NCBI RefSeq assembly: GCF_017086365.1
Contig: NZ_CP070969.1
Location: 248,001 to 312,000 of the forward strand
DNA from: Paenibacillus tianjinensis
Lineage (GTDB): Bacteria; Bacillota; Bacilli; Paenibacillales; Paenibacillaceae
Direction: 5' to 3'
DNA: 64,000 bases
A program made the translations under genes and the position numbers. The notes under the pieces are model-generated. The model was not told where the DNA came from. It searched no databases and saw only the letters and a list, made by a program, of their open reading frames with translations. Below, piece by piece: positions 26,364-60,400 of the stretch (position 1 is its first letter; every line of letters starts with the position of its first letter).

Positions 26364-26431
26364 TCGTGGCAAGGTATGTCATGAAACAGGAGGGAAAAGT
26401 TTCGTGGTAAGGTATGTCATGGCACAGGAGG
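26364..26431 (+). repeat. Two tandem 30-base repeats, 38-base period
   Basis: TCGTGG(C/T)AAGGTATGTCATG followed by a near-identical ACAGGAGG end occurs at 26364 and again at 26402. Both copies end in AGGAGG-like sequence, but no open frame follows. It directly borders the large hairpin repeat. Confidence 0.55.
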
Positions 26432-26627
26432 CTCCAAAGATTAGTTGGATTTTCTCCAGCTAAATCGACCATTATCCATAATTTATAATGATTAGTTGGA
26501 AAAACTCCATCTATTCCGAATCATAAGCCCTCTATGGGGTGAATTCGGTACAATCAAGTGGAGTTTTTCCAATTAGCCTTCTAATCCTAGCGGTGGAGGG
26601 CAAAAGAGGTGGAGAAATTCCACTTAG
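26430..26627 (-). repeat. Four-hairpin dispersed repeat, intact copy
   Basis: This roughly 200-base intergenic element reads best on the minus strand. It holds four imperfect palindromes of about 20 bases of the form AGTTGGA-A/T-rich-TCCACTT, with a conserved middle containing ACCGAATTC. It aligns along its whole length, from GAAGTGGAATTT-like start to TTTGGAGCC end, with the copy at 57729-59350 on the plus strand. Its ends are inverted relative to each other (about 13 of 17 bases), like a MITE. It contains no open frame. It fills part of the 597-base gap between GH105 and iolG. Confidence 0.75.
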
Positions 26628-26779
26628 CCTGATCAGAAGCATGTGCCTTGCCAAACAATTGTTCATAAAGTTCTGATGAAGAACAGGCCTGCACAAGCAA
26701 AGTGCTGCCATACTACAAGTCTGTGCGGGTCCCTAATTAGCTGTAAATTAAATGCGGTACAACTTGGCGAAAGATTTGC

Positions 26780-26808
26780 TTGTCGCTTCGGGGGACTTGG
26801 AGTATACT
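26780..26808 (+). promoter_or_regulatory. Promoter of iolG-iolB
   Basis: TTGTCG and TATACT are 17 bases apart, and the operator lies 11 bases downstream of the -10. Confidence 0.65.
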
Positions 26809-26819
26809 GATCACGGGAG

Positions 26820-26837
26820 AGGTTAAGCGCTTACCCT
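26820..26837. promoter_or_regulatory. LacI-type operator before iolG
   Basis: AGGTTAAGCGCTTACCCT is built on the AAGCGCTT centre typical of LacI-family sites and covers the early transcribed region. The identical 18 bases recur at 30842-30859 before iolC. The LacI gene lying between the two blocks is the likely binder. Confidence 0.75.
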
Positions 26838-26856
26838 CTGAGGAGGATAAGCGAAT

Positions 26857-27882
26857 ATGGTAAAACCAATCGTAGTTGGCATTATCGGCGCCGGAAGAAT
26901 CGGCCGCCTGCATGCGCATAATCTGCGCGTGATGCCGTCGTTTACACTGAAGTCAATTGCGGAGGCTGTAGTGAGCGAGGATTTGCTGGCCTGGGCGGAG
27001 AGCCGCGGCCTTGGCCCGGTGTTCGTGGAGGCGGAAGACATTCTGAATGATCCGGAGATCGAGGCGGTGTTCATCTGTACACCAACAGATACCCATGCCA
27101 CCTGGATTGAGCGGGCCGCCCGCGCCGGGAAGCATATTTTCTGCGAGAAGCCGATCAGCCTGTCGCCCCAGCAGACCAGCCGGGCGCTGCAGATTGCAGA
27201 GGAAGCGGGTGTGCTGCTTCAGGTCGGCTTCAACCGCCGGATGGACCCGAGCTTCCGTAAGCTCAAGCAGCTGGTCCAGTCAGGAGAGCTGGGCAGTCCG
27301 CATATTGTGAAGATCACTTCACGTGATCCGCAGCCTCCTGGCGAGGCTTATGTCCGCTCTTCCGGCGGAATGTTCATGGATATGACGATCCACGATTTTG
27401 ATATGGCCCGCTACCTGATGGGCGAGGAAGTGGTTGAAGTGTACACCCGGGGCGCCAATCTGGTCGATCCGATGTTCGGACGCTGCGAAGACGTGGACAC
27501 GGCTGTAATTACGCTGACCTTCGCCAGTGGCGCGATCTGCGTGATTGATAACAGCCGGAAGGCGGTCTATGGCTATGATCAGCGGGTCGAGGTGTTCGGC
27601 TCGCTCGGCTCAGCCACTGCCGACAATTGCCGCCCGACGACAGTAGAGGTATCCACTGCAGCATCGGTCACACGTGATCAGCCGCTGCATTTCTTCCTGG
27701 AGCGGTATAACCAGGCCTTCACGGATGAGGTTGCCGCGTTTGCCCAGGCGGTTCGCTTGCAAGAGCCAATCATTTGCAGCGGTATTGACGGGCAGCAGGC
27801 GGAACGCATTGCCGAAGCAGCAAAAGAATCGCACCGCACCGGGCTTCCGGTTAAGTTGCAACATGGTTCGCCGACAGCGTAA
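26857..27882 (+). CDS. iolG: Inositol 2-dehydrogenase (Gfo/Idh/MocA family)
   Basis: The 341-residue protein has AGGAGG upstream of its ATG. The N-terminal Rossmann domain opens VVGIIGAGRIGRLHAHNL. CEKPISL holds the active-site Lys, and GFNRRMDPSF and GGMFMDMTIHDFDMARYL are hallmarks of inositol dehydrogenases. It oxidises myo-inositol to 2-keto-myo-inositol with NAD. It is followed by iolB after about 47 bases, and the other inositol enzymes lie 3 kb downstream, which supports the assignment over other sugar dehydrogenases of the same fold. Expression is controlled from the promoter/operator at 26780-26837. Confidence 0.9.
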   Translation: MVKPIVVGIIGAGRIGRLHAHNLRVMPSFTLKSIAEAVVSEDLLAWAESRGLGPVFVEAEDILNDPEIEAVFICTPTDTHATWIERAARAGKHIFCEKPISLSPQQTSRALQIAEEAGVLLQVGFNRRMDPSFRKLKQLVQSGELGSPHIVKITSRDPQPPGEAYVRSSGGMFMDMTIHDFDMARYLMGEEVVEVYTRGANLVDPMFGRCEDVDTAVITLTFASGAICVIDNSRKAVYGYDQRVEVFGSLGSATADNCRPTTVEVSTAASVTRDQPLHFFLERYNQAFTDEVAAFAQAVRLQEPIICSGIDGQQAERIAEAAKESHRTGLPVKLQHGSPTA

Positions 27883-27929
27883 GTCTTGTAAACGGATGCA
27901 CATTCTAAAGACAGAGGAGACCGGTGAAG

Positions 27930-28760
27930 ATGCCAGATTTAATCGTTAAGGCTGGAGCGCCCGGCAAGGATGGACTTGTGGCGGCCGTGAGCAAGGAGAG
28001 CGCAGGGTGGAAATATGTAGGTTTTGAGGTATACCAGCTGCAGGCTGGGGAGCTGCTTACCCGCAGCGCGGAAGGGAATGAAGTCTGCCTGGTGCTGCTG
28101 TCGGGCAAAGCGGACGTAAAGGTAGATGGTGAAGTTTTCGCTGATATCGGCGAGCGGATGTCTGTATTCGAGGATATGCCGCCGTATGCGGTGTACGTTC
28201 CGGCAGGAGGGCAATATGAAGTTACTGCCCTAACGGAACTGGAGCTGGGTGTCTGTCTTGCTCCGGCAACGGGCAAATATCCTCCGCGGCTGATCACCCC
28301 GTCCGATGCAGTATCCGAGGATCGCGGCTCCGGCAGTATGTCACGGCGGGTGGTCAATATTCTTCCTGAGCAGAGTGAAGCCGAGAGCCTGCTGGTTGTT
28401 GAAGTGCGCACGAGCGGGGGCAACTGGTCCAGCTATCCTCCGCATAAGCATGACCAGGATAATCTGCCGGCAGAATCTTATCTGGAAGAAACGTATTATC
28501 ACCGGGTAAACCCCGCCCACGGCTTTGTGGTGCAGCGGGTATACAGTGACGATAGAAGCCTTGATGAGACGATGGCCGTAACGGATCGCTGCATTGTGCT
28601 CGTTCCGGAAGGCTACCATCCGGTATCCGCCCCGCCGGGCTACGATTCTTATTATCTGAATGTAATGGCAGGTCCGGTCCGTACTTGGGTCTTCCATAAC
28701 GACCCGGAGCATGAGTGGCTATTCGGGGCGCAGCAGCAACGCCCGGACAAACAGGAATAA
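27930..28760 (+). CDS. iolB: 5-deoxy-glucuronate isomerase
   Basis: The 276-residue protein is started at ATG 27930, ten bases after AGGAG; a GTG two codons earlier is possible. It has the double cupin arrangement of IolB, with the metal-binding stretch SSYPPHKHDQDNLPAESYLE, followed by ETYYHRVNPAHGFVVQRVY and VPEGYHPVSAPPGYDSYYLN. It converts 5-deoxy-glucuronate to 2-deoxy-5-keto-gluconate in inositol breakdown, between the IolD and IolC steps. It is cotranscribed with iolG and closed by the terminator at 28775. Confidence 0.94.
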   Translation: MPDLIVKAGAPGKDGLVAAVSKESAGWKYVGFEVYQLQAGELLTRSAEGNEVCLVLLSGKADVKVDGEVFADIGERMSVFEDMPPYAVYVPAGGQYEVTALTELELGVCLAPATGKYPPRLITPSDAVSEDRGSGSMSRRVVNILPEQSEAESLLVVEVRTSGGNWSSYPPHKHDQDNLPAESYLEETYYHRVNPAHGFVVQRVYSDDRSLDETMAVTDRCIVLVPEGYHPVSAPPGYDSYYLNVMAGPVRTWVFHNDPEHEWLFGAQQQRPDKQE

Positions 28761-28774
28761 TCAAGGCAGATCCA

Positions 28775-28808
28775 AGAGGGGCTTCCGGAATGGCGGAGGC
28801 CCCTCTTT
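28775..28808 (+). terminator. Terminator after iolB
   Basis: AGAGGGGCTTCC pairs with GGAGGCCCCTCT and is followed by TTTGC. It separates iolGB from the regulator gene. Confidence 0.75.
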
Positions 28809-28891
28809 GCGTAATCTGATGACGATCTGTGGACAACTGCACGGCTTCATAGACACCGTCTGGCGAGTTCCCTATAATCTATATAAAAGGT

Positions 28892-28925
28892 AGGAGTGCG
28901 GAGGGGGAGTTTGGAACTGGAGGAG
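28892..28925 (+). repeat. Partial copy of the structured repeat at 2459
   Basis: GGAGTGCGGAGGGGGAGTTT and the following GGAACTGGAGGAG match the opening of the 2459-2612 block with few changes. The inverted-repeat half seen there is missing here, so this copy is truncated. It lies about 95 bases before the LacI gene. Confidence 0.55.
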
Positions 28926-29018
28926 CCGCAGTTACGACCAGTACCCTAATATGAAAGTCTAAAGTTCCACTTATAACAGGTATAAGATTGCATGAACGCA
29001 AAGGCGGGCTTACTAACG

Positions 29019-30029
29019 ATGAAACCTACGATATATGATGTGGCACGGGAAGCGGGAGTCTCGATCGCTACGGTGTCCAAGGTATTGAACAAGAGCGGGC
29101 GGATTAGCGACAAGACGCGGGAGAAAGTGGGCCGGGTCATGGAGGAGCTGAATTATCAGCCGAGTCTGGTAGCCTCTGCGCTGACGAGCCGAAGGACAGG
29201 AACGATTGGGCTGATGATTCCGGATATCGCCAATCCATTTTTTGCAGAGGCAGCACGCAGTATTGAAGATTACGCACAGGAACAGGGGAGCGACTTAATC
29301 GTGTGCAGTACGGACCGGAACGACGAGAAGGCGGCCAGATATATCTCGCTGCTCTTGCGCAAGCGGGTGGACGGTCTAATCATTGCTTCCCATACTGGCA
29401 ATCCTGACATGATCCGCCGCCTGCTGGCTGATCATGTGCCGCTAGTGCTGTTCTCGGCGGATATCCGCATGATGGAGAGCAACTCTGTTACGGTGGATGA
29501 TTACAAAGGCGGCTATCAGGCGACAGAATATTTGCTGTCCTTAGGGCATCGCAAACTGGGCATTATATCCGACAATTTGCCGGGGAGCAAGCTGCGTGCT
29601 GAGGGTTTCCTGGATGCGCTGAAGGCGGCGGGTATCCCCTTCGACAATCCGGCGAATATCACGCATACTTCGGCTACGCTTGAGAACGGCCGCAAAGCTG
29701 CCGCCGCAATGCTGGGCCAGACAGAGGCGGAGCGGCCAACAGCAGTGTTCGCCTGCAACGACCTGCTCGCTATCGGGGTATTGAAGGAGGCGCGCAGCGC
29801 GGGTCTGTCCATTCCCCGGGATCTGTCCGTAGTGGGCTTTGACAATACGATGCTGGCAGACATTTGCCATCCCACTTTAACCAGCATTGCCCAGCCCCTG
29901 CGCGAGATGACGGAGCAGGCCATGATTCTGCTGAACCAAGCCATCGACAACCCGGAGATGCCGAGGCGCAAAATCATGCTGATGCCTGAGCTGGTTGTCC
30001 GTCATTCCACGGGTCCGGTACCGGGTTGA
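29019..30029 (+). CDS. LacI-family repressor, probably of the iol genes
   Basis: The 336-residue protein is started at ATG 29019 so that the helix-turn-helix (IYDVAREAGVSIATVSKVLN) begins at residue 4, as is usual. An ATG at 28992 has no ribosome site. The periplasmic-binding-type sensor domain follows (TGTIGLMIPDIANPFFAEAA, VFACNDLLAIGVLKEA, VVGFDN). It lies between iolGB and iolCADE, both of which carry the same operator, so it most likely represses them until an inositol intermediate binds. In Bacillus subtilis this job is done by the DeoR-type IolR, so the regulator type differs. No operator is seen before its own gene. Confidence 0.88.
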   Translation: MKPTIYDVAREAGVSIATVSKVLNKSGRISDKTREKVGRVMEELNYQPSLVASALTSRRTGTIGLMIPDIANPFFAEAARSIEDYAQEQGSDLIVCSTDRNDEKAARYISLLLRKRVDGLIIASHTGNPDMIRRLLADHVPLVLFSADIRMMESNSVTVDDYKGGYQATEYLLSLGHRKLGIISDNLPGSKLRAEGFLDALKAAGIPFDNPANITHTSATLENGRKAAAAMLGQTEAERPTAVFACNDLLAIGVLKEARSAGLSIPRDLSVVGFDNTMLADICHPTLTSIAQPLREMTEQAMILLNQAIDNPEMPRRKIMLMPELVVRHSTGPVPG

Positions 30030-30061
30030 AAGAGAAAGATATCTTAAGGAGTTGGGCGTAG

Positions 30062-30685
30062 GTGTCAATCCATGAGAAGGTACAACAGTGGGAACGGGAA
30101 GAGGGCGTCAGGCTCTTTCAAAATCTCGGTCTGCCCCGTAATGCGGCGATTTTAGATTATGGGTGTGGATTTGGTCATTATTCAATAGCCGCTTCAAGGT
30201 TTCTGGGAGGCAAGGACGGACAGGTATATGCAGTAGATATCAATAAGGATTGCCTGAAACATGTTTCTAAGGTAGCTGATGAGGAAGGTCTGGTAAATAT
30301 TATAGCTGCCGGAGGGAACAAGGATTATAGCTTTAACTTTTCAAATGATTTTTTTGACATGATTATGTTCTATGACCTCTTGCATGGCGATGGATTTCAT
30401 AGATTTACCCTGTATGAAGAGGCTTCAAGAACTCTGAAAAAAGGGGGAATCTTGTCGATTCTGCCGTTCCATCTGTCAAACTTCCGGGATAAGGAAGGAA
30501 AGAAAAAAAGCTACTCCTACCGTAAATTGGTCTTGGAAGCTCAAGAATATGGGTTTACGGAAATCAGCGAAAAGCCGCTGGGCATTCATTTTGAGAAATA
30601 TCACAGCGCATATTATATAAATAAAGGCGGAGTTGAATTCGAGAATTTGGAAAGAGCAGAAATTTTGAATTTGCAAAAAAACTAA
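30062..30685 (+). CDS. SAM-dependent methyltransferase, class I
   Basis: The 207-residue protein starts at GTG 30062, with AAGGAG ten bases upstream. The SAM-binding motif I is ILDYGCGFGHYS, followed by YAVDINKDCL and a later MIMFYDLLHG that replaces the usual motif IV. The substrate is unknown. It begins 32 bases after the LacI gene and so may share its transcript, then ends at its own terminator. Its sequence is visibly richer in A and T than the surrounding iol genes, and it splits the pathway cluster, both of which suggest it was acquired later. No inositol step needs a methyltransferase. Confidence 0.85.
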   Translation: MSIHEKVQQWEREEGVRLFQNLGLPRNAAILDYGCGFGHYSIAASRFLGGKDGQVYAVDINKDCLKHVSKVADEEGLVNIIAAGGNKDYSFNFSNDFFDMIMFYDLLHGDGFHRFTLYEEASRTLKKGGILSILPFHLSNFRDKEGKKKSYSYRKLVLEAQEYGFTEISEKPLGIHFEKYHSAYYINKGGVEFENLERAEILNLQKN

Positions 30686-30716
30686 GGTTCAAGTCCATAA
30701 GCTTGGCACCTGAAAG

Positions 30717-30746
30717 GCCAGTCTAGTACATAGACTGGCTTGTTTG
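30717..30746 (+). terminator. Terminator after the methyltransferase gene
   Basis: GCCAGTCTA pairs perfectly with TAGACTGGC around GTACA, followed by TTGTTTG. Confidence 0.85.
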
Positions 30747-30799
30747 CGTGTCTTGTAGGGCTGTCGTGCAAGTGTGATGATAGCGCTTCAAATTGAGGA

Positions 30800-30828
30800 T
30801 TGCCAAACCTGAACTTCTAAACTATACT
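30800..30828 (+). promoter_or_regulatory. Promoter of iolC-iolA-iolD-iolE
   Basis: TTGCCA and TATACT are separated by 17 bases, a strong vegetative match and nearly the same as the iolG promoter. A half-operator-like TAGCGCTTCA lies just upstream at 30781. Confidence 0.75.
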
Positions 30829-30841
30829 AAAGGGGAAAATC

Positions 30842-47930: not shown

Positions 47931-48014
47931 AAGTAAAAAAATTGGGCCCAAGCACCTTTGCAGTACGTCTGTTGATCTACCAATCTATTAACTTTGAGGT
48001 CATGGAGGAATCTA

Positions 48015-51000
48015 ATGAAGCGCAGAACAATGAATCGCTTATTTTCCGGCACAATCGCAGGGGGAATGCTGGTTTCTACTTTGCTGGCCCCTGCCGCTTT
48101 TGCGGCGCCTTCCGCCGGCAGCAAGATCACGTCGGAACAGGCGGCAGCTATTCTTAAGGGATTGACCCCGGCACAAAGACAGGCACTGGAACAGATCAGT
48201 GTAAGTTCCGGACCGGTTATTTCGCCCGAAATTAACACGGAGAGCACAGATCTTGTCAACGTTATCGTCCAGTTTATCCCTGAACCGGCGGCAGTAGCCG
48301 GACTGGCAGACTCCGGAAAAATGCGGAAGTTTTCTATGGCCTCCGCGGAAGACCAGGTAGAGCAGTCCCATAAGGAATTCAAGGCTTTTATCGGTAAACT
48401 GAAGATCAACAAACTGGAGAGCGGCCGCAGCGCATTCGCGTATAATCCGTCGGAAATTTCAATTTATCAGGAGTACCGCGAAGCTTTTAACGGTGTGGCT
48501 GTAACCTTGCCGGGCACTGCTGTGCAGGATTTGGCGAGTTCCGGTCTGGTCAAAAAGATCTGGAATGATACTACAGTTCAATTGCCGGGGGATACGGTTG
48601 TTCCTACTGATCTTACAGGGGAAGACAACGCCGCTGATTTAACTGCAGGAGAAGAGGCTGCCGACACCAGCAAGCTGATGATGGAGAGCTTTCCGGTCAT
48701 TGGAGTGGACAAGCTGCATGACGAGAACATTACCGGTAAAGGCATTAAGGTAGGTATTCTGGATACCGGGATTGATTATAATCACCCCGACTTAACCAGC
48801 GTTTATCACGGATACCGTAAGACCGAAGGTGAAGATCTGGCAGCTGTCGATCCGGCTACCGTTAAGGGCTGGGACTTTATCGGCAATGATGCCGATCCGA
48901 TGGAGACCACCTACAATGATTGGGTAGCAGCCGGTGAGCCGGAATCTGAATCGGAGTATTTCACGGCCCACGGTACGCATGTAGCCGGGACCATTGCCGG
49001 GCAGCAGGCCAATGATGTCGATTATGCCGCCCTGGGCGTTGCGCCTGATGTCGAGCTTTATTCCTACCGTGTCCTTGGACCTTATGGATCAGGCGCGAAC
49101 AGCGGCATCATCGCCGGGATTGACAAGGCCGTTCAGGACGGCATGGATGTTATCAACCTGTCACTTGGTTCGAAGTTAAATGATCCGCTCGATCCGACGT
49201 CCATAGCCATTAACAACGCTATGCTGGCCGGAGTTGTCAGCGTAATTGCTGCAGGCAACGACGGCCCGGCAGCAGGCACGCTCGGAACACCAGGGGCAAG
49301 TGCACTGGGTATAACGATCGGTGCCTCCAGCGTGCCGATCGCCATTCCTACGGTTACGGCTTCCGTATATGATGCGGCCGTTCCGGCAGCCGCAGGTGAA
49401 GAGTCTGCTGCTGTTACGGATACGGTCTACCAGTCGCTGAACATGAAGCTGTTCGGTGAAGAGTTCAACTATGAACCTGCCGGCATCGTCGGCACAGAGC
49501 AGGAGCTCGTATATGCAGGTCTTGGTAAGGCTGGTGATTTTGCAGGCATTGATGTGGCTGGCAAAGTTGCCCTTATCGCACGCGGAGAGATCGGCCTGAA
49601 CATCAAAATCAAGAATGCCGCCAAAGCCGGTGCAATCGCGGCCATTATCTATAATAATACAACCGGTTATATCGATAATTATCTGGGTGAGGCTTCCGGA
49701 TATATTCCTACCTTCCAGATTGAGCAGGCGGCAGGCGAGAGCCTGAAGAAGATGGTCAAGCCTTATATCAGCTTTACGGATGTAAGCGACGCGGTGTCGC
49801 AGGGCGATCTGCTGGCTGATTTCAGCTCGCGGGGGCCCGTGTCGGGAACAGATGACATCAAGCCTGACCTTGTAGCTCCGGGTGTGGCGGTATTCTCCAC
49901 CTATCCGGTATATATGAATGATCCGGTCAACCAGAGCAACTATGATATCGCCTATACGCGGATGTCAGGTACTTCCATGGCGACTCCGCATGTCACCGGC
50001 ATCGCCGCCCTGATTCTGCAGAAGCATCCGGACTATACGCCTTTCGATGTAAAGGCTGCGCTTATGAATACCAGCGTTGACTTAAATAAGGACTATTCGA
50101 TCTATGAAGTTGGCGCAGGACGAGTAGATGCTTATCGTGCAGTTCATGCGGATACGACCGTTAAGGTGCTGGATACAACCACCAGCGTTTCCGCTGACAA
50201 TGAGTATGTTGAGATTGCCGATATTACCGGCTCCCTGAACTACGGAAGTGTGTATACCGAAGAAGGGAAGACCACTTCAGCCAGCAAGACGCTGGAGCTG
50301 GATAACGGGGGGGAGAACGCCAAGACCTATCACCTGGAGCTGGAGCTGCCTTCGAGCGCCCCGATTACACTAAGCAGAGACGAGGTATCCGTACCTGCAG
50401 AATCCAGCACAACCTTCAGTGCCCAGCTGCTGGTAAATGATTCGGTGCCGAACGGAACCTATGAAGGATATATTCATGTAATCAACGAAGCAGATGCTGC
50501 GGACGTTTACCAATTGCCGCTGCTCATCCGGGTATCAGACAAAGGCCTCGATTACCTGGAAATGGATCCGCCCGCAATTTCCAATAACTATGTGATGCAT
50601 TCCTATTCCAACTGGGTTACAACTGCCTTTTTCTCTATGAAGAGCCCGATGGAGACTATGGATGTCTATCTTAAGGATTACAAGACCGGAGAGGTATTAG
50701 GATTCCTGGGCACTGTGAATACTGCAGATCTAGCTGTAGGTAAAGACCTCATGCTGCTCAATATGTTCAAAGGTTATGTCTATCCATTTACAGAAGACGG
50801 CGGCATCTCGAAAGTCTCCCGCTTTGTTCCAGAGGGCGAATATGCGCTCGAGGCGTTCTCCATAGATGCGGGAGGTGAAACCTATCAGGTGGAATCCCCG
50901 ATGACGCTGGTAGATAATACATCGCCGGAACTTTCACTCAAGTCTACGAATGCTGCCGGAGATACGGCTTCGCTGACTCCGCAGGTCTTTGAAGTGGATG

Positions 51001-53726
51001 ATTCGATGTTCACGACAGAAACGTATGACGGTAAAGATATTTCCGCTATCTGGGTACACGGGAACATTACGGACAGCAGTGTGAAGCCGCTGCAAGAGGC
51101 GGGATATTCCTATGATCAAAGCGACAATAAGGTAGCCTTTTATGAATACGGCAGCCCGTTCATGTCCGGTTACTTTAAGGCGGATAAGAACGGGGACTTC
51201 CGTTACGGGATTACGAAGGAAGACTTCGCATTGGAACCGTATGAACTGCGGCTCTTCGGCTGGGACCCTGCAACGGTAGGGACGACCTGGCTGGGCAATA
51301 AATATGTGTATCTGACCCCTGATACCACTTATGCGCTGACCGAGCTGGATAAGAAATCGGTGCAGGTGGGCGATACCTTCACTGCTACAATGAACATGAA
51401 TAATCTGAAGGCGTTCACCGGAGCAGAGTTTACCCTGCAGGAAATCACAGGTGCCTTCGAACTGGAGTCCATCGGGGCAACGGACGAGGTCAAAGCGCTT
51501 GCGGCGAAGCAAGGGGCTGCGGTTGACGTTCAGCAGGATGTATTTAATGAATTCTACAGCAGTGTAAAAGTGAACCTGCAAGGTGAAAACCTCGCGGGGA
51601 TCGACGGTGATGTGCCGCTGCTGACCCTTAAATATAAGGTAGCCGACGATGCGTATTATAATAAGGTGGCTACCATTCTCGCGACCGACCTTTACGTGAC
51701 TCAAGCCGGAGCGGAGGAAGCTGTATATACACCATCTTACACAACCGATTATATGGCTTTTGTATCCCACACTTCGCGCCTTTATGGATACGTAAGTCCG
51801 GAAGCCTTTATGGTAAATGGCGAATTCCTGCAATTCGGTAAGGATTACAGCAAGATGAACTTCAACGTGTATGCAGAGACCGAATCAGGTAAAAAATACA
51901 CGGCAACAATTGACAAGAATGCCCAATACAACATCAAATCCATTCCTGCAACGGATGAGGTAATTAAAGTAACCTTCAAATCACCGGGACATACTTCCCT
52001 CAGCTATTCGATGACTGATTATAAGCTTGAGAATGGCAAGGTGATCGGTGCACAGCAGCTGTTGTCCCTGAATGGCGCGCTGGCCGGGGATGTCAACGGC
52101 GATGAAGTTATTGACATTCTTGATTTGCAGCAGGCTGGATTGGCTTACAAGACCAGTGATCCCAAGTCTGATATCAACCAGGACGGAACCGTGGATGATA
52201 CAGATATCCAGTTCATCGTGAACAACTTCCTGAAGCTTGGCCAGAGTGCCGCAGTCGATGCGGTGGCTAAGGACAGCACCGGAGGTGTTGGCTTGGATGA
52301 GATGCTGGAGCAGATCAAGAACGGTACGCTTGGTAACGGCGGCGGCACTGACAATGGCGGCGGCACTGACAACGGCGGCGGCACTGACAATGGCGGCGGC
52401 ACTGACAATGGCGGCGGCACTGACAATGGCGGCGGCACTGACAATGGCGGCGGTACTGACAACGGCGGCGGCACTGACAACGGCGGCGGCACCGACAACG
52501 GCGGCGGCACCGACAATGGCGGCGGCACCGACAACGGCGGCGGCACCGACAATGGCGGCGGCACTGATAGTGGCGGCACTGGAACGGGCAGTAGTAACAC
52601 GGGCAGCGTTAACACTGCGGCCGCGGTTACTGAGCAAACCGTTTCGGCCTCCGATTTGGCTGCTGCAGCTAACGGTGTAGTCACAATTGAAGGTAAACCG
52701 GGTGTTCCGGTGAAACTTCCGGCCAATGCCGGAGAATTGCTCAAGAGCAATGGTTTGGCTGTGCGGACGGATGCTGCAACAGTAACCCTCCCGGCTGAAG
52801 TACTGCAGGCATTAGCAGCACAAGCTAATGATAATAATCAGGGCAATATCTACTTGACTGTTACAGCCAAGGCGGCAACACCTGAATCTTCCGAAGCGGG
52901 TGTAACGCTGTCATCGGGTGGAGTTTATGATTTCAATCTGTCCTACAAAAAGGCAGACGGGGAAGAGCTCCGGCTTACAGCCTTCCCTAAAGACGTGCAG
53001 CTGACGCTGTCTTACAGCAACAGTCTGAATGCCGATCTGGCAGGCATCTACTATCTGAACGATAAGGCCTCCGCTTGGGAATATGTGGGCGGCAAGGTCA
53101 ATACAGCACAGCATACCATCACCGCAAATGTAAGTCACTTCAGTACTTACGGTGTACTGGCTTACGATAAGAGCTTCACCGATCTTTCCGCTTCGCACTG
53201 GGCTGTGGGAGCCGTTAAGGCATTGTCCGCGAAGCACATCGTAACCGGACAGTCGGAAACGCTGTTCGCTCCGAATGCGAAGACAACACGCGCAGAATTC
53301 GTAGCAATGATCGTACGGGCGCTGGGACTGAATACGGAAGCTGCTGATAAGGCATACTTCAGCGATGTTCCGGCTGAGGCCTGGTATTCAGATGAAGTTG
53401 CTTCGGCGCATGCAGCCGGTCTGGTTAACGGAATGACACAGACGGCATTTGCGCCTAATCAGAGCATTACCCGTGAAGAAATGGCTGTTATTGCGATGAA
53501 TGCTTACGCATATGCAGCAGCGAAGCAGGCTGGTGCTTCTGCCCATACTAAGGAGTACAAGGACCAATCATCCATTTCATCCTGGGCACAAGAAAGTATC
53601 GGCCAGGCTGCAGGCTTAGGAATTATGTCCGGGCTTGACAGCGGCCTGTTCGCTCCAAAAACAGCGGCAAGCCGCGCGGAAACGGCACAAACTATTTATA
53701 ACCTGTTGACTGCAGCAGGCGAGTAA
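48015..53726 (+). CDS. SLH-anchored subtilase with cohesin- and dockerin-like domains
   Basis: The 1,903-residue protein starts MKRRTMNRLF at 48015, with AGGAG seven bases upstream. Order: a signal peptide (1-31, cut after APAAFA), an I9-type propeptide, and an S8 catalytic domain with Asp in ILDTGIDYNHPDL (about 250), His in AHGTHVAGTIAG (about 319) and Ser in SGTSMATPHVTG (about 653). A PA domain is inserted, as in Vpr proteases. Fn3-like regions follow, then a cohesin-like domain (about 1107-1225), a dockerin-like pair of calcium loops (GDVNGDEVID and DINQDGTVDD, about 1358-1405), thirteen GGGTDN-type repeats (1442-1519), a beta domain and three SLH repeats (about 1720-1903) that hold it to the cell wall. 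It would digest proteins at the surface. It is a single-gene unit. Confidence 0.93.
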   Translation: MKRRTMNRLFSGTIAGGMLVSTLLAPAAFAAPSAGSKITSEQAAAILKGLTPAQRQALEQISVSSGPVISPEINTESTDLVNVIVQFIPEPAAVAGLADSGKMRKFSMASAEDQVEQSHKEFKAFIGKLKINKLESGRSAFAYNPSEISIYQEYREAFNGVAVTLPGTAVQDLASSGLVKKIWNDTTVQLPGDTVVPTDLTGEDNAADLTAGEEAADTSKLMMESFPVIGVDKLHDENITGKGIKVGILDTGIDYNHPDLTSVYHGYRKTEGEDLAAVDPATVKGWDFIGNDADPMETTYNDWVAAGEPESESEYFTAHGTHVAGTIAGQQANDVDYAALGVAPDVELYSYRVLGPYGSGANSGIIAGIDKAVQDGMDVINLSLGSKLNDPLDPTSIAINNAMLAGVVSVIAAGNDGPAAGTLGTPGASALGITIGASSVPIAIPTVTASVYDAAVPAAAGEESAAVTDTVYQSLNMKLFGEEFNYEPAGIVGTEQELVYAGLGKAGDFAGIDVAGKVALIARGEIGLNIKIKNAAKAGAIAAIIYNNTTGYIDNYLGEASGYIPTFQIEQAAGESLKKMVKPYISFTDVSDAVSQGDLLADFSSRGPVSGTDDIKPDLVAPGVAVFSTYPVYMNDPVNQSNYDIAYTRMSGTSMATPHVTGIAALILQKHPDYTPFDVKAALMNTSVDLNKDYSIYEVGAGRVDAYRAVHADTTVKVLDTTTSVSADNEYVEIADITGSLNYGSVYTEEGKTTSASKTLELDNGGENAKTYHLELELPSSAPITLSRDEVSVPAESSTTFSAQLLVNDSVPNGTYEGYIHVINEADAADVYQLPLLIRVSDKGLDYLEMDPPAISNNYVMHSYSNWVTTAFFSMKSPMETMDVYLKDYKTGEVLGFLGTVNTADLAVGKDLMLLNMFKGYVYPFTEDGGISKVSRFVPEGEYALEAFSIDAGGETYQVESPMTLVDNTSPELSLKSTNAAGDTASLTPQVFEVDDSMFTTETYDGKDISAIWVHGNITDSSVKPLQEAGYSYDQSDNKVAFYEYGSPFMSGYFKADKNGDFRYGITKEDFALEPYELRLFGWDPATVGTTWLGNKYVYLTPDTTYALTELDKKSVQVGDTFTATMNMNNLKAFTGAEFTLQEITGAFELESIGATDEVKALAAKQGAAVDVQQDVFNEFYSSVKVNLQGENLAGIDGDVPLLTLKYKVADDAYYNKVATILATDLYVTQAGAEEAVYTPSYTTDYMAFVSHTSRLYGYVSPEAFMVNGEFLQFGKDYSKMNFNVYAETESGKKYTATIDKNAQYNIKSIPATDEVIKVTFKSPGHTSLSYSMTDYKLENGKVIGAQQLLSLNGALAGDVNGDEVIDILDLQQAGLAYKTSDPKSDINQDGTVDDTDIQFIVNNFLKLGQSAAVDAVAKDSTGGVGLDEMLEQIKNGTLGNGGGTDNGGGTDNGGGTDNGGGTDNGGGTDNGGGTDNGGGTDNGGGTDNGGGTDNGGGTDNGGGTDNGGGTDNGGGTDSGGTGTGSSNTGSVNTAAAVTEQTVSASDLAAAANGVVTIEGKPGVPVKLPANAGELLKSNGLAVRTDAATVTLPAEVLQALAAQANDNNQGNIYLTVTAKAATPESSEAGVTLSSGGVYDFNLSYKKADGEELRLTAFPKDVQLTLSYSNSLNADLAGIYYLNDKASAWEYVGGKVNTAQHTITANVSHFSTYGVLAYDKSFTDLSASHWAVGAVKALSAKHIVTGQSETLFAPNAKTTRAEFVAMIVRALGLNTEAADKAYFSDVPAEAWYSDEVASAHAAGLVNGMTQTAFAPNQSITREEMAVIAMNAYAYAAAKQAGASAHTKEYKDQSSISSWAQESIGQAAGLGIMSGLDSGLFAPKTAASRAETAQTIYNLLTAAGE
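52338..52571 (+). repeat. Coding minisatellite, 13 units of 18 bases
   Basis: Twelve units encoding GGGTDN and a thirteenth encoding GGGTDS follow without interruption. Units differ only at silent third positions (ACT/ACC, AAT/AAC, GGC/GGT). The array makes a flexible spacer between protease and wall anchor, and its unit number is likely to vary between strains. Confidence 0.95.
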
Positions 53727-55255: not shown

Positions 55256-55262
55256 TGTGATG

Positions 55263-56600
55263 TTATTCTGCAGCGGCCGAAGCCGATTCTTTACCGGCAA
55301 AAAAGTTCGGCAGATACTCCCTGTTCGCCTCCAGCATCTCATCCAGCATAGCGATAGCCACCTCTACGGAAGGTACGAGTGGATGATGGGCGAGCGCCTG
55401 GACCGCCAGGCTGCGGTCGCCGGTAACGGCTGCGTCAATCGCCAGCTGCTCATACGTCTTCACGGCATGGATCAGCCCCTTAGCCATCGGCGGAATCTTA
55501 GTCAGCGGCAGCGGCAGCGGTCCCGTCTTGGTCACGACACAGTTGACCTCAATGCTGGCATCCTCCGGCAAAAAGCTGAGAATGCCGCGGTTCGCCACGT
55601 TCAGCGTCTGGATATCATTCGTGCCATTGTGCAGTGAACGCATCAGGTTGACGGCCGCTTCGGAATAAAAGGCGCCGCCGCGCTGCTCCAGCTGCTTCGG
55701 CTTCTCCTTCAGCTCCTGGTTGCTGTAGATTTCGAACAGCTCTTCCTCAACACGTTTGACTACTTCGGCGCGGTTTGCGCCTTGCTTGGCGGAGGCCAGC
55801 TGCTCTTCGAGCATGGCATCGGTCATGTAGAAATATTTCAAATAATAAGAGGGCAGGGCACGCAGCGACTGCAAGAATTCCGGATTCCATTCCCGGGCTG
55901 GGACGTTCTTTGCACTGTATCCGGCCGTATCGTCCAGCATGTCGTCCAGCTTGTCTTCCCCCTCGACATCAATCCTTGTAATCCAGTGCAGATGATTCAG
56001 CCCTACAAACTCAGCGTATATCCGGTCTGGGGCAGCATTGTATTTTGCTGACACCTGCTTAATTAGCCCGATGGGCGCATTACAGAGGCCGATGCTCTTC
56101 ACCTTCGAGTATCTCAGCACCGCTTCGGTCACCATTCCCGCAGGATTGGTGAAGTTCAGCAGCCAGGCGTCAGGGGCGAGTTCTTCGATATCCCGGCAGA
56201 TATCCAGAATGACCGGAATGGTGCGCAGCGCTTTCATCATTCCGCCCGGGCCGGTCGTTTCCTGGCCGATGACGCCGTATTTGAGCGGAATAGACTCATC
56301 GCGGGCGCGGGCGGCCAGCATGCCGACACGGATCTGGGTGCTGACGAAGTCGGCACCGGCAATCGCCTCGCGGCGGTCAGTTGTCAGATGGACTGTAATC
56401 GGCAGTCCGGATTCCTGCACCATCCGCTTAGCCAGACTGCCGACGATGTTCAGCTTATGCAGTCCGGGTTCAATATCCACGAGCCACAGCTCAGTCACAG
56501 GAAGCTCCTTGTGATGGAGAATGAAACCTTCGATTAGTTCAGGTGTATAGGAAGAGCCGCCGCCGATCACGGCGATCTTGAGTCCTTGGTTAGCTGCCAA
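55263..56600 (-). CDS. 6-phospho-glycosidase, NAD-dependent (GH4)
   Basis: The 445-residue protein starts at TTG 56600, with AGGAG upstream. The NAD-binding start KIAVIGGGSSYTPELIEGF, NFTNPAGM, the metal-site Cys in GLCNAPIG and the His in FVGLNHLHW are GH4 hallmarks of the CelF/LicH 6-phospho-beta-glucosidase branch. These enzymes need NAD and a divalent metal and cleave phosphorylated disaccharides by oxidation and elimination. Usually the phosphate comes from PTS uptake. Here no PTS is near, and the preceding gene six bases away is a sugar kinase, so the kinase probably supplies the phosphate. Confidence 0.9.
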   Translation of the reverse strand: MAANQGLKIAVIGGGSSYTPELIEGFILHHKELPVTELWLVDIEPGLHKLNIVGSLAKRMVQESGLPITVHLTTDRREAIAGADFVSTQIRVGMLAARARDESIPLKYGVIGQETTGPGGMMKALRTIPVILDICRDIEELAPDAWLLNFTNPAGMVTEAVLRYSKVKSIGLCNAPIGLIKQVSAKYNAAPDRIYAEFVGLNHLHWITRIDVEGEDKLDDMLDDTAGYSAKNVPAREWNPEFLQSLRALPSYYLKYFYMTDAMLEEQLASAKQGANRAEVVKRVEEELFEIYSNQELKEKPKQLEQRGGAFYSEAAVNLMRSLHNGTNDIQTLNVANRGILSFLPEDASIEVNCVVTKTGPLPLPLTKIPPMAKGLIHAVKTYEQLAIDAAVTGDRSLAVQALAHHPLVPSVEVAIAMLDEMLEANREYLPNFFAGKESASAAAE

Positions 56601-56606
56601 GATGAA

Positions 56607-57602
56607 TCACTCCTGTCTGGTTGTTATCGGAATGGGTTCGAATTCCTGAAAGGTACGCATTTTATCATAGATTTCACTGGTGATGCTGAGGCCGTCACTT
56701 TCGAGCGCAGACCATACCGCACCGACCACAGGCTCTGTGGTCAAGGTAACAACTGAGGCGTGCGGCGCGGCTTCGCGCACAGCCTGTTCAATCGGCCCGC
56801 GGATCCAGCCGCGGTCCCCCCGGGTCAGCAGGCTGCCGGCCAGCACGACGTCGAAGACGTCATGCTCCATGCCCAGCCTGCGGATCACGGCCGCTGCCGA
56901 CTTGCCCAGCTCGGCACCCTGCCGGTGCAGGATGGCGAGCGCTGGGGCATCGCCCGCCGCTGCCGCCGGGAACAGCAGGCGCGCCGCATCCAGCGGCACG
57001 GATTTGCCATGGTCGAGGAAGTCGTTGTACATGTCCTCGACCGACCTATAGCCCAGCAGCTCCAGCAGCGCTGCGGTCAGCAGGGTCGGTGCCTCGCGCC
57101 CGTCCCAGGCGCGGATCACGGTGCGGAACACCTCGACATTCAGCGCGCCGCCGCCGCCGAAGTCACCATACATATAATCGAAGCCGCCGCACTGGAAGTG
57201 CCGGCCTTCACGGTTGCGTCCTGCGGCATTGGTGCCGGTGCCGCAGATCAGGGCGACCCCGTACGGGCGGTTCGTGCCCGCCCGGAGGCCGATCATCGTG
57301 TCACCGCCAATCGTATAGCTGCTAAATCCGAGGCTGCGGATCAGCGGATGGAGGATGTCATAGTCCGCCTTGCGGTCGGCTCCGGCGAGTCCGAGATAGG
57401 TATGCCTAACATCCTCAAGCCGGAGCCCGGCCTCCGCCAGTGCGGCAAACGCCGCCGCCCGGATATTTGCGGCGGCTTCCTCCAGGCCGGTCTGGTGATT
57501 GCCGTTGCCGCTCCTGCCTTTGCCGAGCACATTGCCCGCGGCATCGGTCAGCAGGGCATAGGTTTTACTTCCGCCCCCATCGATCCCCATATAGTAAGCC
57601 AA
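56607..57602 (-). CDS. BadF/BadG-family sugar kinase (N-acetylglucosamine kinase-like)
   Basis: The 331-residue protein starts at TTG 57602, with AGGAG upstream. The ATP-binding motifs are YMGIDGGGSKTYALLTD (phosphate 1), LICGTGTNAAG and VLAGSLLTRGDRG. FQCGGFDYMYGDFGGGGALN matches the sugar-binding part of N-acetylglucosamine kinases. It is six bases from the GH4 gene, so they are translated together. The likely role is to phosphorylate an imported sugar or disaccharide at carbon 6. Its leader contains a 28-base duplication (57620-57710), and an IS element separates it from the regulator and transporter upstream. Confidence 0.88.
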   Translation of the reverse strand: MAYYMGIDGGGSKTYALLTDAAGNVLGKGRSGNGNHQTGLEEAAANIRAAAFAALAEAGLRLEDVRHTYLGLAGADRKADYDILHPLIRSLGFSSYTIGGDTMIGLRAGTNRPYGVALICGTGTNAAGRNREGRHFQCGGFDYMYGDFGGGGALNVEVFRTVIRAWDGREAPTLLTAALLELLGYRSVEDMYNDFLDHGKSVPLDAARLLFPAAAAGDAPALAILHRQGAELGKSAAAVIRRLGMEHDVFDVVLAGSLLTRGDRGWIRGPIEQAVREAAPHASVVTLTTEPVVGAVWSALESDGLSITSEIYDKMRTFQEFEPIPITTRQE

Positions 57603-57619
57603 TGGTCGTCACTCCTAAA

Positions 57620-57710
57620 AGTTTTGTGAGCAATCCTTCATTGATGTCTCTTCGTACAAAACTGCTTCGAAAGCATATGCTTAGTTTTGTGAGCAATCCT
57701 TCATTGATGT
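57620..57710 (-). repeat. Duplicated 28-base leader sequence before the kinase
   Basis: An identical 28-base stretch occurs at 57620-57647 and 57683-57710, 63 bases apart. On the minus strand each contains an ATG with a tiny frame encoding MKDCSQN. In the copy next to the kinase the frame ends in TAG overlapping the kinase ribosome site (TTTTAGGAG). Confidence 0.8.
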
Positions 57711-57931
57711 GCGTGTGCTAATTAAAATGAAGTGGAATTTTCCCATTTATTTCTCCATCAAACACTGGGATTAGGATGCTAGTGGGAAAAACTCCACTTA
57801 ATCGAACCGAATTCGCCCCCAAAGGATGGCGTAAAGTAAGTTGTGTACCAAGATTTGGAGCCTAGTCAGGCAACAAAAAAGTAGGGTATTCTCGGGATTG
57901 TCGAAGTCCACCAAGAAAGGAACCCTACTCG

Positions 57932-59122
57932 ATGACTATTCTACCCGAAAACATGTTAAATAATCTATTTGAAAATCTTGTCACCCAATTTGTAAAAGAT
58001 AATCTAGAGTCCATTATGAAAGCGGAAATCCAGCAATTCATGACCAGTGAAGAAGCCGGGAACCACAACAGCCGCAACGGATACTACACCCGGGATCTAC
58101 ACACGAAATACGGAAATGTAGAGGATCTGGCCGTTCCTAGGGACCGTCAAGGAGCCTTCCAAACGCAGTTGTTCGAGCCCTACCAGCGGCGAGATGGATG
58201 GCTAGAGGAGGCTGTCATCCAGATGTACAAAAGTGGTATGGGAACGCGAGATGTGGCCCGGTTCATTGAAAGTATGTTCGGCAGCCACTATTCACCCACG
58301 ACCGTTAGCAACATTACAGCTACGGTACTTGACGACATTCATCAGTGGCAGAAGCGCCCGTTAAACAAACGCTACTCCGTGATCTACCTGGATGGCCTAT
58401 ATGTGAAACTCAAGCGCAGCACCGTTAGCGGAGAAGTCGTTTATTTCGCCATGGGGATCGACGAAGACGGTCACCGCCAGATCCTTGGCTTTTACGTAGG
58501 CGGCCAGGAGAGCGCAAACGGCTGGCGCGAGGTGCTCAAAGACCTCTACGACCGTGGTGTCCAGGAAGTCTTGCTGGGCGTGTTTGATGGGCTTCCGGGA
58601 CTCGATGCAGCGTTCCGTGAAACTTATCCGAAGGCGGATGTGCAGCATTGTATCGTCCACAAAGTGCGTTCGACCTTCCCGAAAATTCGGATTCAGCACA
58701 AAACGGAAGTCATTGAAGATCTGAAGACGATCTACACGGCTGCAGACCACGATCTGGCTCGGGCTGCGTTTGACACGGTGAAGGCCAAATGGGGCAAGCT
58801 CTACCCGAAAGAAATGCGGTCTTGGGAAGAACAGTTGCCAACGCTGCTGACCTTTTACAAGTATCCTGCGCTCATAAAGGAAGCCATCTACACGTCCAAT
58901 CCAATTGAACGAATGAACAAGGAAATCCGAAAGCGTCTGAAACCCATGAATAGCCTCACGAATATGGATGCAGCAGAGAAAATTGTCTACCTGGACGTCA
59001 TCGATTACAACGAACGTTTTAGCGAACGGGTCATTCGCGGCTTCGGCGATCTGGAAGTAAAGAAGAAACTAAATGAGATGTTTGAAGCGCGATATTCAGC
59101 GCAGGCAGAGCAAGAGAAGTAA
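57932..59122 (+). CDS. IS256-family transposase, intact
   Basis: The 396-residue protein has AAGAAAGGA upstream of its ATG. The DDE catalytic core is visible: the first Asp in SVIYLDGLYVKLK, the second in GVFDGLPGLDAAF, and the Glu in TSNPIERMNKEIRKR, with the C-terminal domain complete. The zinc-free mutator-type motif DVQHCIVHKVRSTFP lies between them. There is no frameshift or stop, so the element may still move. It is oriented opposite to the sugar genes around it. Confidence 0.96.
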   Translation: MTILPENMLNNLFENLVTQFVKDNLESIMKAEIQQFMTSEEAGNHNSRNGYYTRDLHTKYGNVEDLAVPRDRQGAFQTQLFEPYQRRDGWLEEAVIQMYKSGMGTRDVARFIESMFGSHYSPTTVSNITATVLDDIHQWQKRPLNKRYSVIYLDGLYVKLKRSTVSGEVVYFAMGIDEDGHRQILGFYVGGQESANGWREVLKDLYDRGVQEVLLGVFDGLPGLDAAFRETYPKADVQHCIVHKVRSTFPKIRIQHKTEVIEDLKTIYTAADHDLARAAFDTVKAKWGKLYPKEMRSWEEQLPTLLTFYKYPALIKEAIYTSNPIERMNKEIRKRLKPMNSLTNMDAAEKIVYLDVIDYNERFSERVIRGFGDLEVKKKLNEMFEARYSAQAEQEK

Positions 59123-59135
59123 CTCAAAATCCCTT

Positions 59136-59169
59136 GTTCTTTGGGGCGGGTCCCCCCGCCCCAAAGAAC
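59136..59169. terminator. GC-rich perfect hairpin after the transposase gene
   Basis: GTTCTTTGGGGCGGG pairs perfectly with CCCGCCCCAAAGAAC around TCCC. It has no good T-run, but could block transcription across the IS in either direction. Confidence 0.6.
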
Positions 59170-59332
59170 ATCTGCACTTACCAACGAACACCCGAGAAGT
59201 TACATTCTGCTCTTTTACACAAACTTCTTGACGCTACCCCCCAAAGGGATGGATGATGCGAAATAGGTGGAGGTTTTCCAACTAATCATAGTAAATTATC
59301 AAAAACGATGGAATTAGATGGAGGAAATCCAA

Positions 59333-60400
59333 CTAAGTAAGTTTGGAGCCGCCTTTCTGAAACATAATCAGCTGTGTCCCTGAATCGCGTTCTGAGAGGT
59401 TGCACTGCACCCTACTCCCGGAAGTCGATTCCCGCACAATCAGCTCCGGATCAATCCGGATGCTGGCGCCCCGCTTCATATTGCCGTTAATCCGCCGCAG
59501 CAGCATATCGGCTGCGGCCAGCCCTATCTTGTCGGCAGGCTGGCGCAGCGTAGTCAGATGCGGGCGGAGCTGTGAAGCAATATAGTGGTCGTCATAGCCG
59601 ACCACGGCCACCTCTTGCGGCACGCGGACACCGGCCTCCATCAGCGCATTGATCAGGCCGAGTGCGATGTTGTCGTCGCCCGCGAACACTGCCGTGGGCA
59701 GCTTCCCCTCCCGGAGCCAGCGTTTGCCCGTGTCATAACCCATGCCGATATCGAAATCTCCGTGTACAATTTCGAACGGCTCCAGCCCTTTCTCCTGCAG
59801 TGCCTGCAGGAAGCCGCTGCGCCGCTCGCGCGTGCTGCGGAACATCTCCTGCCCGCAGAGATGGGCGATGGAGGTATGCCCCAGCTCCAGCAGATGGCTG
59901 GCTGCGGCATAGCCGCCTTTGACATTGTCGATGGTAACCGAGTAGGCGTCATTACTCTCCTGCTGATTATCGATCAGCACATAGGGAATGCCCCGGCGCT
60001 TCAGCTCCACGAGATAATTGTCTTCCTCCATCGGCGATAGCAGAATCAGTCCGTCTACCCGGTCCTCCTGGATCAGATAATGATTGTCGCCGCCTTCCAT
60101 ACCTGTAGAGATGGAGATGGCCAGGAAATACCCGTGCAGCGCAAGCACCTCGTTCAGCTCTTTGACCACTGCATCGAAGAAGGAATCCTGCAGTGTCGTT
60201 ACGATCAGGCCGATAATTCCGGTCTTGCCGCTGGCCAGACTGCGGGCAGCTGCGCTCGGCCGGTAGTCCAGCTCCCTGATCGCATCGAGCACCTTCTGCC
60301 GGTTGTTTTCCCGCACGGATCCGGCGCCGTTTAGTACGCGGGATACGGTAACAACGGACAATCCCGATTTTTTGGCTACATCAAATATACTTACTTTCAT
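59333..60400 (-). CDS. LacI-family repressor of the third sugar operon
   Basis: The 355-residue protein starts MKVSIFDVAKKSGLSVVTVS with the helix-turn-helix at the very N-terminus; CAAGGAGCGC is upstream. The sensor domain has TGIIGLIVTTLQDSFFDAVV, VFAGDDNIALGLINALMEAG and VVGYDDHY. Family proteins normally end near IVRESTSG. Here about 25 extra residues follow, the last five (GSKLT) and the stop coming from the hairpin repeat. The palindromic operators at 63722-63819 before the permease genes are the likely targets. The gene follows the binding-protein gene, reading in the same direction. Confidence 0.9.
   Translation of the reverse strand: MKVSIFDVAKKSGLSVVTVSRVLNGAGSVRENNRQKVLDAIRELDYRPSAAARSLASGKTGIIGLIVTTLQDSFFDAVVKELNEVLALHGYFLAISISTGMEGGDNHYLIQEDRVDGLILLSPMEEDNYLVELKRRGIPYVLIDNQQESNDAYSVTIDNVKGGYAAASHLLELGHTSIAHLCGQEMFRSTRERRSGFLQALQEKGLEPFEIVHGDFDIGMGYDTGKRWLREGKLPTAVFAGDDNIALGLINALMEAGVRVPQEVAVVGYDDHYIASQLRPHLTTLRQPADKIGLAAADMLLRRINGNMKRGASIRIDPELIVRESTSGSRVQCNLSERDSGTQLIMFQKGGSKLT

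What the first reader, a model, noticed from the sequence alone, without database searches (positions are those of the whole stretch)
26430..59350. A roughly 200-base, four-hairpin repeat present twice in opposite orientation
The element at 26430-26627 (minus) and the element at 57729-59350 (plus, after removing the IS) have nearly equal length, about 198 and 200 bases. They align end to end: each contains four imperfect palindromes of about 20 bases (TGGA...TCCA), a shared ACCGAATTC centre and a TTTGGAGCC end. The outer ends are inverted relative to each other, like a MITE. A single unit of the same kind lies at 19514-19536. It encodes nothing, so it may be a non-autonomous mobile element or a structured RNA or processing site. 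I know of no named family for it.
Basis: seen in the sequence. Interest (0 to 1): 0.72.

Follow-up and report, generated by a model that had tools for sequence, protein, structure and literature searches.

The report
Four-site DNA repeat with fixed spacing
A 187-base stretch of non-coding DNA, scattered many times through the chromosomes of soil spore-formers, carries four mirror-image sites at almost unvarying distances although the DNA between them changes freely, so it looks like a docking platform for a protein that has not been identified.

Summary
Both window copies are a 187-bp element of four palindromic sites (core GGAnnnnnTCC) whose starts lie 51, 62 and 51 bp apart. Copy 2 is split by a 1,413-bp Mutator-type IS with a 9-bp duplication; subtracting it restores 62 exactly. 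The geometry occurs at 16 places in this Paenibacillus genome, in 22 of 60 genomes including its own, and in records named as eight Bacillales genera. Reversed-pattern control: none.
Sites 1-2 and 3-4 point outward in opposite directions. The two arms of one 'hairpin' match no better than arms of other sites of the element; orthologues show 3 pair-keeping against 69 pair-breaking or pair-making changes. This argues for DNA half-sites rather than RNA hairpins. No clear target duplication and no linked transposase were found.
The 51-bp step, and a few loci where the element runs into 51-bp arrays, tie it to the unexplained 51-53-nt repeats of Bacillus and Paenibacillus (PMC8161180). I read it as the compact, mirror-symmetric form of that class, bound by an unknown protein that co-evolves with each species' site.

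The parts
26441..26463 (-). copy 1, first site in window order (TTAGTTGGATTTTCTCCAGCTAA)
   Evidence: 16/16 consensus positions
26492..26514 (-). copy 1, second site, +51
   Evidence: 15/16
26554..26576 (-). copy 1, third site, +62
   Evidence: 12/16
26605..26627 (-). copy 1, fourth site, +51
   Evidence: 12/16; whole element 24/24 core bases (G000:C1:274447-274621)
57728..57750 (+). copy 2, site 1
   Evidence: 11/16
57779..57801 (+). copy 2, site 2, +51
   Evidence: 13/16
57817..57825 (+). about 9-bp target duplication of the IS, left copy (CCCCAAAGG)
   Evidence: uninterrupted orthologue L061 aligned
57826..59238 (+). IS of Mutator (Transposase_mut) type inserted in the centre of copy 2; not part of the element
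   Evidence: PF00872, E 5.8e-104, ORF 57932-59122; ends and duplication
59239..59247 (+). target duplication of the IS, right copy
59263..59285 (+). copy 2, site 3 (62 from site 2 after subtracting 1,422 bp)
   Evidence: 15/16
59314..59336 (+). copy 2, site 4, +51
   Evidence: 16/16

Best explanation
The element is a ready-made platform of four protein-binding DNA sites. Each site is an inverted pair of half-sites (consensus, in one direction: TA-nnn-GGA-G-n-www-TCC-nnn-TA). The four sites sit 51, 62 and 51 bp apart, about 5, 6 and 5 helical turns, so that bound dimers would lie on nearly one face and form one mirror-symmetric complex. The half-site sequence differs between species but is shared by the arms and copies within a genome, as expected if one cellular protein reads them and co-evolves with them. 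The element is the compact 2+2 form of the unexplained 51-53-nt repeats of Bacillales; at a few loci arrays continue outward from it in 51-bp steps. Most likely the complex bends, wraps or bridges chromosomal DNA (a nucleoid role, first suggested for the tandem repeats in PMC8161180). SHOWN: sites, distances, polarity, coherence within genomes, lack of hairpin-specific pairing, intergenic position, spread to new loci. INFERRED: that a protein binds, that the sites share a face, and the cellular role.
For: Spacing tested without presupposing it: with the gap between two like-oriented sites left free over 31 values, 102 of 132 hits in three genomes step exactly 51, 6 step 50, 1 steps 52, and 23 have other steps (counted by hand from the coordinates; reversed control 3 hits). 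Outward-facing neighbouring half-elements within 300 bp have a centre of 62 (40) or 61 (8), 48 of 48, from 182 half hits in six genomes. Polarity: sites 1-2 point left in 303 of 324 decided cases, sites 3-4 point right in 305 of 328; 160 of 812 sites are undecided (203 elements). Arm agreement: same site 0.636, other sites of the element 0.647, different elements 0.489; hairpin minus non-mirror other-site difference -0.004, 95% interval -0.018 to 0.009 (153 non-redundant elements). Orthologue substitutions: outer arm bases 59/800, linkers 297/2375, just outside 36/200 (these arm bases are not in the search pattern). Bases 5-7 of the site are 95-99% A/T. Register with 51-bp arrays: L119, L166, L263; L008, where three of four centres of a different palindrome fall on the same 51-bp grid. 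Tandem arrays of another GGGA..TCCC palindrome: 16 of 16 steps are 51 although 34-64 was allowed.
Against: No binding protein was identified, and no known nucleoid protein was tested. Seventeen of 36 same-genus relatives show no element at this stringency, so it is dispensable or its core diverges. In-genome copying also fits a selfish element. Extension into arrays is uncommon: by a strict test none of 203 elements has a further exact site 50-52 bp beyond either end, and three exact tandem GGAG sites were found in 1 of 200 Bacilli genomes while the reversed control hit 4. Chromosome-position bias is weak: in the three genomes whose contig starts at dnaA the half nearer the origin holds 17/22, 19/27 and 13/21 loci. 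Core conservation in orthologues (10/600) is partly built in by the search pattern.
Confidence: 0.55

Rival explanations
1. Non-autonomous transposable element: each end carries two transposase-binding sites (outer and inner) and a transposase encoded elsewhere moves it; the fixed spacing is that of the transposition complex.
For: Mirror symmetry with conservation falling to background outside sites 1 and 4 (88 elements); near-identical copies at different loci of one genome, e.g. 95% L101/L102 and 92% L105/L109, with flank identity near background within about 20-40 bases on at least one side; species-specific ends shared by the copies of a genome (list cut in the middle); mirror arms agree slightly more than other arms, +0.020 (0.007-0.034). 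A short agreement that overlaps the element ends (first three bases against bases 4 to 2 from the end: 54 real, 36 permuted; a 4-mer 17 against 8) could hide a small duplication, though the single permutation was not kept within species.
Against: No target duplication outside the ends in 202 elements against permutations. Y1 transposase absent from G001, G011, G012, G026, which hold 19-28 copies. No neighbouring left and right half-elements between 300 bp and 10 kb apart among 182 half hits, so no larger element with these ends (by inspection). No recurring neighbour gene: the largest family, an ABC transporter ATPase by its longest member, is in 12 groups of loci. Does not explain 51-bp arrays in register, nor slower change of arm bases in orthologues.
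Confidence: 0.27
2. Structured RNA or RNA processing site with four hairpins.
For: Copy 1 folds far better than shuffles as RNA, z -6.1; 52-nt repeats of B. coagulans are reported as transcribed (PMC8161180); linker 1 shows a slight excess of self-complementarity, 0.315 against 0.287.
Against: Palindromic DNA always folds well; the minimum-energy fold pairs site 2 with 3 and 1 with 4, not the four hairpins. Arm pairing is not site-specific; among orthologues 3 changed pairs stay paired, 69 are paired on one side only, 36 unpaired in both; G-T 222 against A-C 250. Linker 3, the centre, and linker 1 against 3 show no pairing above expectation. No Rfam match (one search gave only a chance-level hit far below its cut-off).
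Confidence: 0.08
3. REP/BIME-like or terminator-like palindromes with no function beyond chance retention at gene ends.
For: Intergenic; divergent gene pairs are avoided: 11 of 159 placed elements against 45 of 263 background gaps of 190 bp or more.
Against: Exact multi-site geometry across genera is not a property of terminators or REP; Y1 does not co-occur.
Confidence: 0.05

Closest known systems
[quoted passage not shown] PMC8161180, whole main text read; their J Bacteriol 2020 paper is not held)
   Same: Constant period (51 here) with species-specific sequence; short signals present together with their reverse; non-coding; several families per genome. Of the 27 Table 1 consensus units, 15 hold a palindrome that beats 60 shuffles at p of 0.03 or less, 10 of these with a centre of 5-9 bases. 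A few arrays of our own site step 51 and continue the element.
   Different: The paper counts arrays of at least four repeats. Here the usual form is two sites facing left and two facing right about a 61-62-bp centre. The paper's main text reports no inverted 2+2 form and no centre spacing; its supplements were not seen.
MITEs
   Same: Short, non-coding, mirror-symmetric ends, many dispersed copies
   Different: No clear target duplication, no cognate transposase found, constant internal spacing, occasional continuation into tandem arrays
REP/BIME and RAYT (Y1) systems (features recalled; one abstract seen in the listing)
   Same: Dispersed intergenic palindromes, species-specific
   Different: Four sites in fixed geometry; Y1_Tnp does not track copy number
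Chromosome-wide palindromic sites such as the Noc-binding sites of B. subtilis (PMC8429893 and PMC4331003, abstracts in the search listing only)
   Same: Short sites scattered over the chromosome
   Different: The abstract gives Noc sites as single 16-bp sites; no sequence comparison was made

Membership tests
51-53-nt constant-length repeats | Constant repeat length 51-53 with variable sequence | tested here: met
   102 of 132 exactly 51, 6 at 50, 1 at 52; TRF on 1.55 Mb of fetched loci, mostly chosen for holding the element: 13 rows (about ten arrays) at 51, 1 at 50, 0 at 52-59
51-53-nt constant-length repeats | Species-specific signals found with their reverse | tested here: met
51-53-nt constant-length repeats | At least four repeats in tandem | tested here: not met
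   Usual form is 2+2 inverted; 0 of 203 have a further exact site 50-52 bp outside; longer arrays at a few loci only
51-53-nt constant-length repeats | Non-coding, Firmicutes hosts | tested here: met
MITE | Terminal inverted repeats, no ORF | tested here: met
MITE | Target-site duplication | tested here: not met
   202 elements, no excess outside the ends; weak agreement overlapping the ends left open
MITE | Cognate autonomous element | tested here: inconclusive
   Y1 does not track; no larger element with these ends among 182 half hits; other transposase families not surveyed
MITE | Empty sites | tested here: inconclusive
   One locus: G011 lacks the element plus about 84 bp of flank, not a precise empty site; the second locus tried is occupied in G009
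REP/BIME-RAYT | Y1 tyrosine transposase in the genome | tested here: not met
Structured RNA | Compensatory change specific to paired arms | tested here: not met
Structured RNA | Match to a curated family | tested here: not met
Nucleoid or chromosome-positioning site | Bound in the cell by a specific protein | not testable with these tools
   needs ChIP-seq or pull-down

The most novel reading that the evidence does not exclude
Bacillales carry an undiscovered nucleoid-organising protein that reads a 51-bp ruler in DNA: a mirror-symmetric 2+2 site nucleates the complex, arrays extend it in either direction, and the site and protein co-evolve rapidly between species, a bacterial parallel to fast-evolving satellite DNA and its binding proteins.
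Probability: 0.3. Interest if true: 0.88.

Novelty: new variant of a known kind. Interest (0 to 1): 0.7.

Why it matters
The 52-nt repeats have been an open puzzle: constant length, no shared sequence, no known function (PMC8161180). The four-site element supplies an anatomy (site, half-site, polarity, centre) and a compact 187-bp probe that can be used to fish for the protein. The distance rule makes clear predictions that one gel-shift series could test.

Tried and rejected
RAYT/Y1 transposase as partner: rejected, absent from several element-rich genomes. Target duplications: none outside the ends; a weak agreement overlapping the ends is left open. Flanking inverted repeats: not above permutation. 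Hairpin covariation: strong between genera but equal between arms of different sites, so it reflects a shared half-site. Linker hairpins, which some copies suggest by eye: slight excess in linker 1 (0.315 against 0.287), none in linker 3 or the centre. Virus origin: 0 exact matches to the element in viral contigs; the IS transposase also has no confirmed relative there. Linked gene: 884 ORFs in 198 loci, largest family in 12 groups. Depletion of copies near the terminus: suggestive in G000, G001 and G012, not in G007 or G033, and G007 and G012 do not start at dnaA, so treated as weak; the 22 positions typed for G000 leave out the fragments at 794162 and 5373634. Indel avoidance in orthologues not used, because loci were chosen by exact spacing and weak pairs passed as orthologues. 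Rows dropped: of 203 elements one failed the flank or letter filter (202; 19 of 202 had an uncertain orientation), 153 remained after removing those 75% or more identical; 159 of 203 had genes placed on both sides; of 48 candidate pairs, 27 had flank identity of 0.77 or more, and 25 were used because the two pairs of L014 (50-bp step) are out of register. Papers: PMC8161180 main text read whole; all others seen only in search listings. Searches for an earlier description; no title or abstract shown there describes the 2+2 form; supplements and the J Bacteriol 2020 paper were not seen.
Full report
What is there. The window lies at 248001-312000 of a 6.27-Mb single-contig genome. Two relatives used for comparison, G011 and G009, are by their contig lengths Paenibacillus auburnensis and P. 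ihuae. Each has four 23-bp imperfect palindromes with cores GGAnnnnnTCC. Copy 1 starts are 26441, 26492, 26554, 26605; copy 2 starts are 57728, 57779, 59263, 59314. Spacings are 51, 62, 51. Copy 2 holds an IS with a Transposase_mut protein, flanked by CCCCAAAGG on both sides; IS plus one duplication is 1,422 bp, and 1,484 minus 1,422 is 62. The orthologous element in G011 (L061) is uninterrupted. The palindrome at 19514-19536 is not of this kind.

How far it reaches. blastn with copy 1 gave 24 matches in the genome. Of the 16 loci fetched from these, 10 carry four scored sites at exactly 51/62/51, a rule the search had not asked for. The others: L015 has three scored sites in register, L014 steps 50/62/51, L006 lacks a scored third site and is one base longer, L008 and L016 are fragments, and L012 I take for a chance hit. 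A pattern fixing only the 24 core bases then gave 16 places (10 perfect; reversed control 0) and matches in 22 of 60 genomes: its own, 19 of 36 same-genus relatives and 2 of 23 same-order ones, up to 30 copies per genome, control 0 in all 60. Viral contigs gave 0 exact matches.

Is the spacing real or put in by the pattern? Two tests left it free. With two like-oriented sites 36-66 bp apart, 102 of 132 hits in G000, G001 and G009 step exactly 51, six step 50, one steps 52, and 23 have other steps, two of these inside elements (counted by hand; reversed control 3 hits). Neighbouring outward-facing half-elements within 300 bp have a centre of 62 (40) or 61 (8), 48 of 48, from 182 half hits in six genomes (reversed control 2 hits in all). 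Linkers meanwhile are weakly conserved.

What the sites are. Pooled over 153 non-redundant elements the site reads TA-nnn-GGA-G-n-www-TCC-nnn-TA, with G at 75% and A/T at 95-99% in the three www positions, none of which the pattern fixed. The off-centre G gives a direction: sites 1-2 point left 303 to 21, sites 3-4 point right 305 to 23, undecided 160 of 812; 99 of 203 elements read left-left-right-right in full. Outer arms differ by genome, e.g. TTAGnTGGA here, TTAGGGA in G001, TATGCGGGA in G045, but are shared by the copies of a genome (the printed list was cut in the middle).

DNA or RNA. If the palindromes worked as hairpins, the two arms of one site should match better than arms of different sites. 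They do not: 0.636 against 0.647, and 0.489 between elements. Among 25 orthologous pairs 3 changed arm pairs stay paired, 69 are paired in one species only, and 36 are unpaired in both. G-T mismatches (222) are no commoner than A-C (250). The low folding energy (z -6.1) is what any palindromic DNA gives. In orthologues the outer arm bases change less (59/800) than linkers (297/2375) or the bases just outside (36/200), so the half-site sequence itself appears to be held by selection; the pairs overlap in species and locus, so I give no p value. I conclude that double-stranded half-sites are the functional unit.

Link to a known puzzle. Tandem Repeats Finder on 1.55 Mb of fetched loci, mostly chosen for holding the element, showed a spike at period 51: 13 rows, about ten distinct arrays, against one at 50 and none at 52-59. 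Some continue a four-site element with the sites pointing outward: L119, with further sites out to 1560, L166, and L263 with five sites. In L008, in this genome, a half element is followed by about four copies of a different palindrome; three of their centres fall on the element's 51-bp grid to within half a base, the fourth was scored six bases off. In G009 and G011 arrays of a related palindrome step 51 in 16 of 16 cases though 34-64 was allowed; G000 had none of that exact form. Extension is uncommon: by a strict test 0 of 203 elements have a further exact site 50-52 bp outside, and three exact tandem GGAG sites occur in 1 of 200 Bacilli genomes, where the reversed control hit 4. Subirana and Messeguer (PMC8161180, main text read in full) describe 51-53-nt repeats of constant length and unrelated sequence in about 30% of the Bacillus species studied, particularly abundant in Paenibacillus, with short signals and often their reverse in one repeat, and suggest nucleoid proteins or small RNAs. 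Of their 27 Table 1 units 15 hold a palindrome better than shuffles at p of 0.03 or less, 10 with a centre of 5-9 bases. I therefore place the element beside that class as its compact inverted form. As the class is counted from four or more tandem repeats, that feature is not met by the usual copy; hence 'variant', not 'member'.

Spread. Within G045, L101, L102, L099 and L032 are 86-95% identical pairwise, with flanks unrelated on at least one side, and within G001 L105 and L109 are 92% identical. So copies do reach new loci. No duplication outside the ends marks insertion. The one candidate empty site (G011 against L003) lacks about 84 bp of flank as well and cannot be read as insertion. Elements avoid divergent gene pairs, 11 of 159 against 45 of 263. 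In the three genomes that start at dnaA, 49 of 70 loci lie in the origin half, strongest here (17/22), weak in G033 (13/21).

Mechanism. With 51, 62 and 51 bp close to 5, 6 and 5 turns of the helix, four dimers would sit on about one face in a mirror-symmetric complex; this is inference from distance alone. A symmetric, outward-polar nucleus to which further sites can be added at 51-bp steps fits a DNA-wrapping or bridging protein best. A transposition complex is the main rival and I give it about half the weight.

Noticed in passing
L096:2961-3144 (G000:C1 about 5124960-5125143): A second, unrelated dispersed repeat of about 160 bp (contains GGACTTCCGGCCGCTGCCC) lies just before a four-site element; by my count it accounts for 37 of 43 matches in G009 and 38 of 44 in G011, at 77-93% identity. 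A like sequence stands beside L002. Only a chance-level Rfam hit elsewhere in the stretch.
   Followed up: partly
L016:491-620 (G000:C1 about 794090-794220): A second IS end with the same terminal bases (119 of 200 bases identical without gaps to the window IS end) sits next to a site of another element, so this IS type may have hit the family twice in this genome.
   Followed up: partly
window 52338-52577: 18-bp repeat, 13.3 copies (GGCGGCGGCACTGACAAT), inside the 1910-aa ORF 47994-53726; it would encode a six-residue repeat.
   Followed up: no
window 26347-26431: 38-bp direct repeat, 2.2 copies, ending next to copy 1.
   Followed up: no
window 19514-19536: Perfect palindrome AAATCCAACTG-T-CAGTTGGATTT, the half-sites turned inside out; perhaps a terminator or operator.
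   Followed up: no
G009:C1:602350, 1025839; G009:C8:132562; G011:C1:2060577: Arrays of ACGGGAnnnnTCCCGT on a strict 51-bp step: a second palindrome type on the same ruler.
   Followed up: partly
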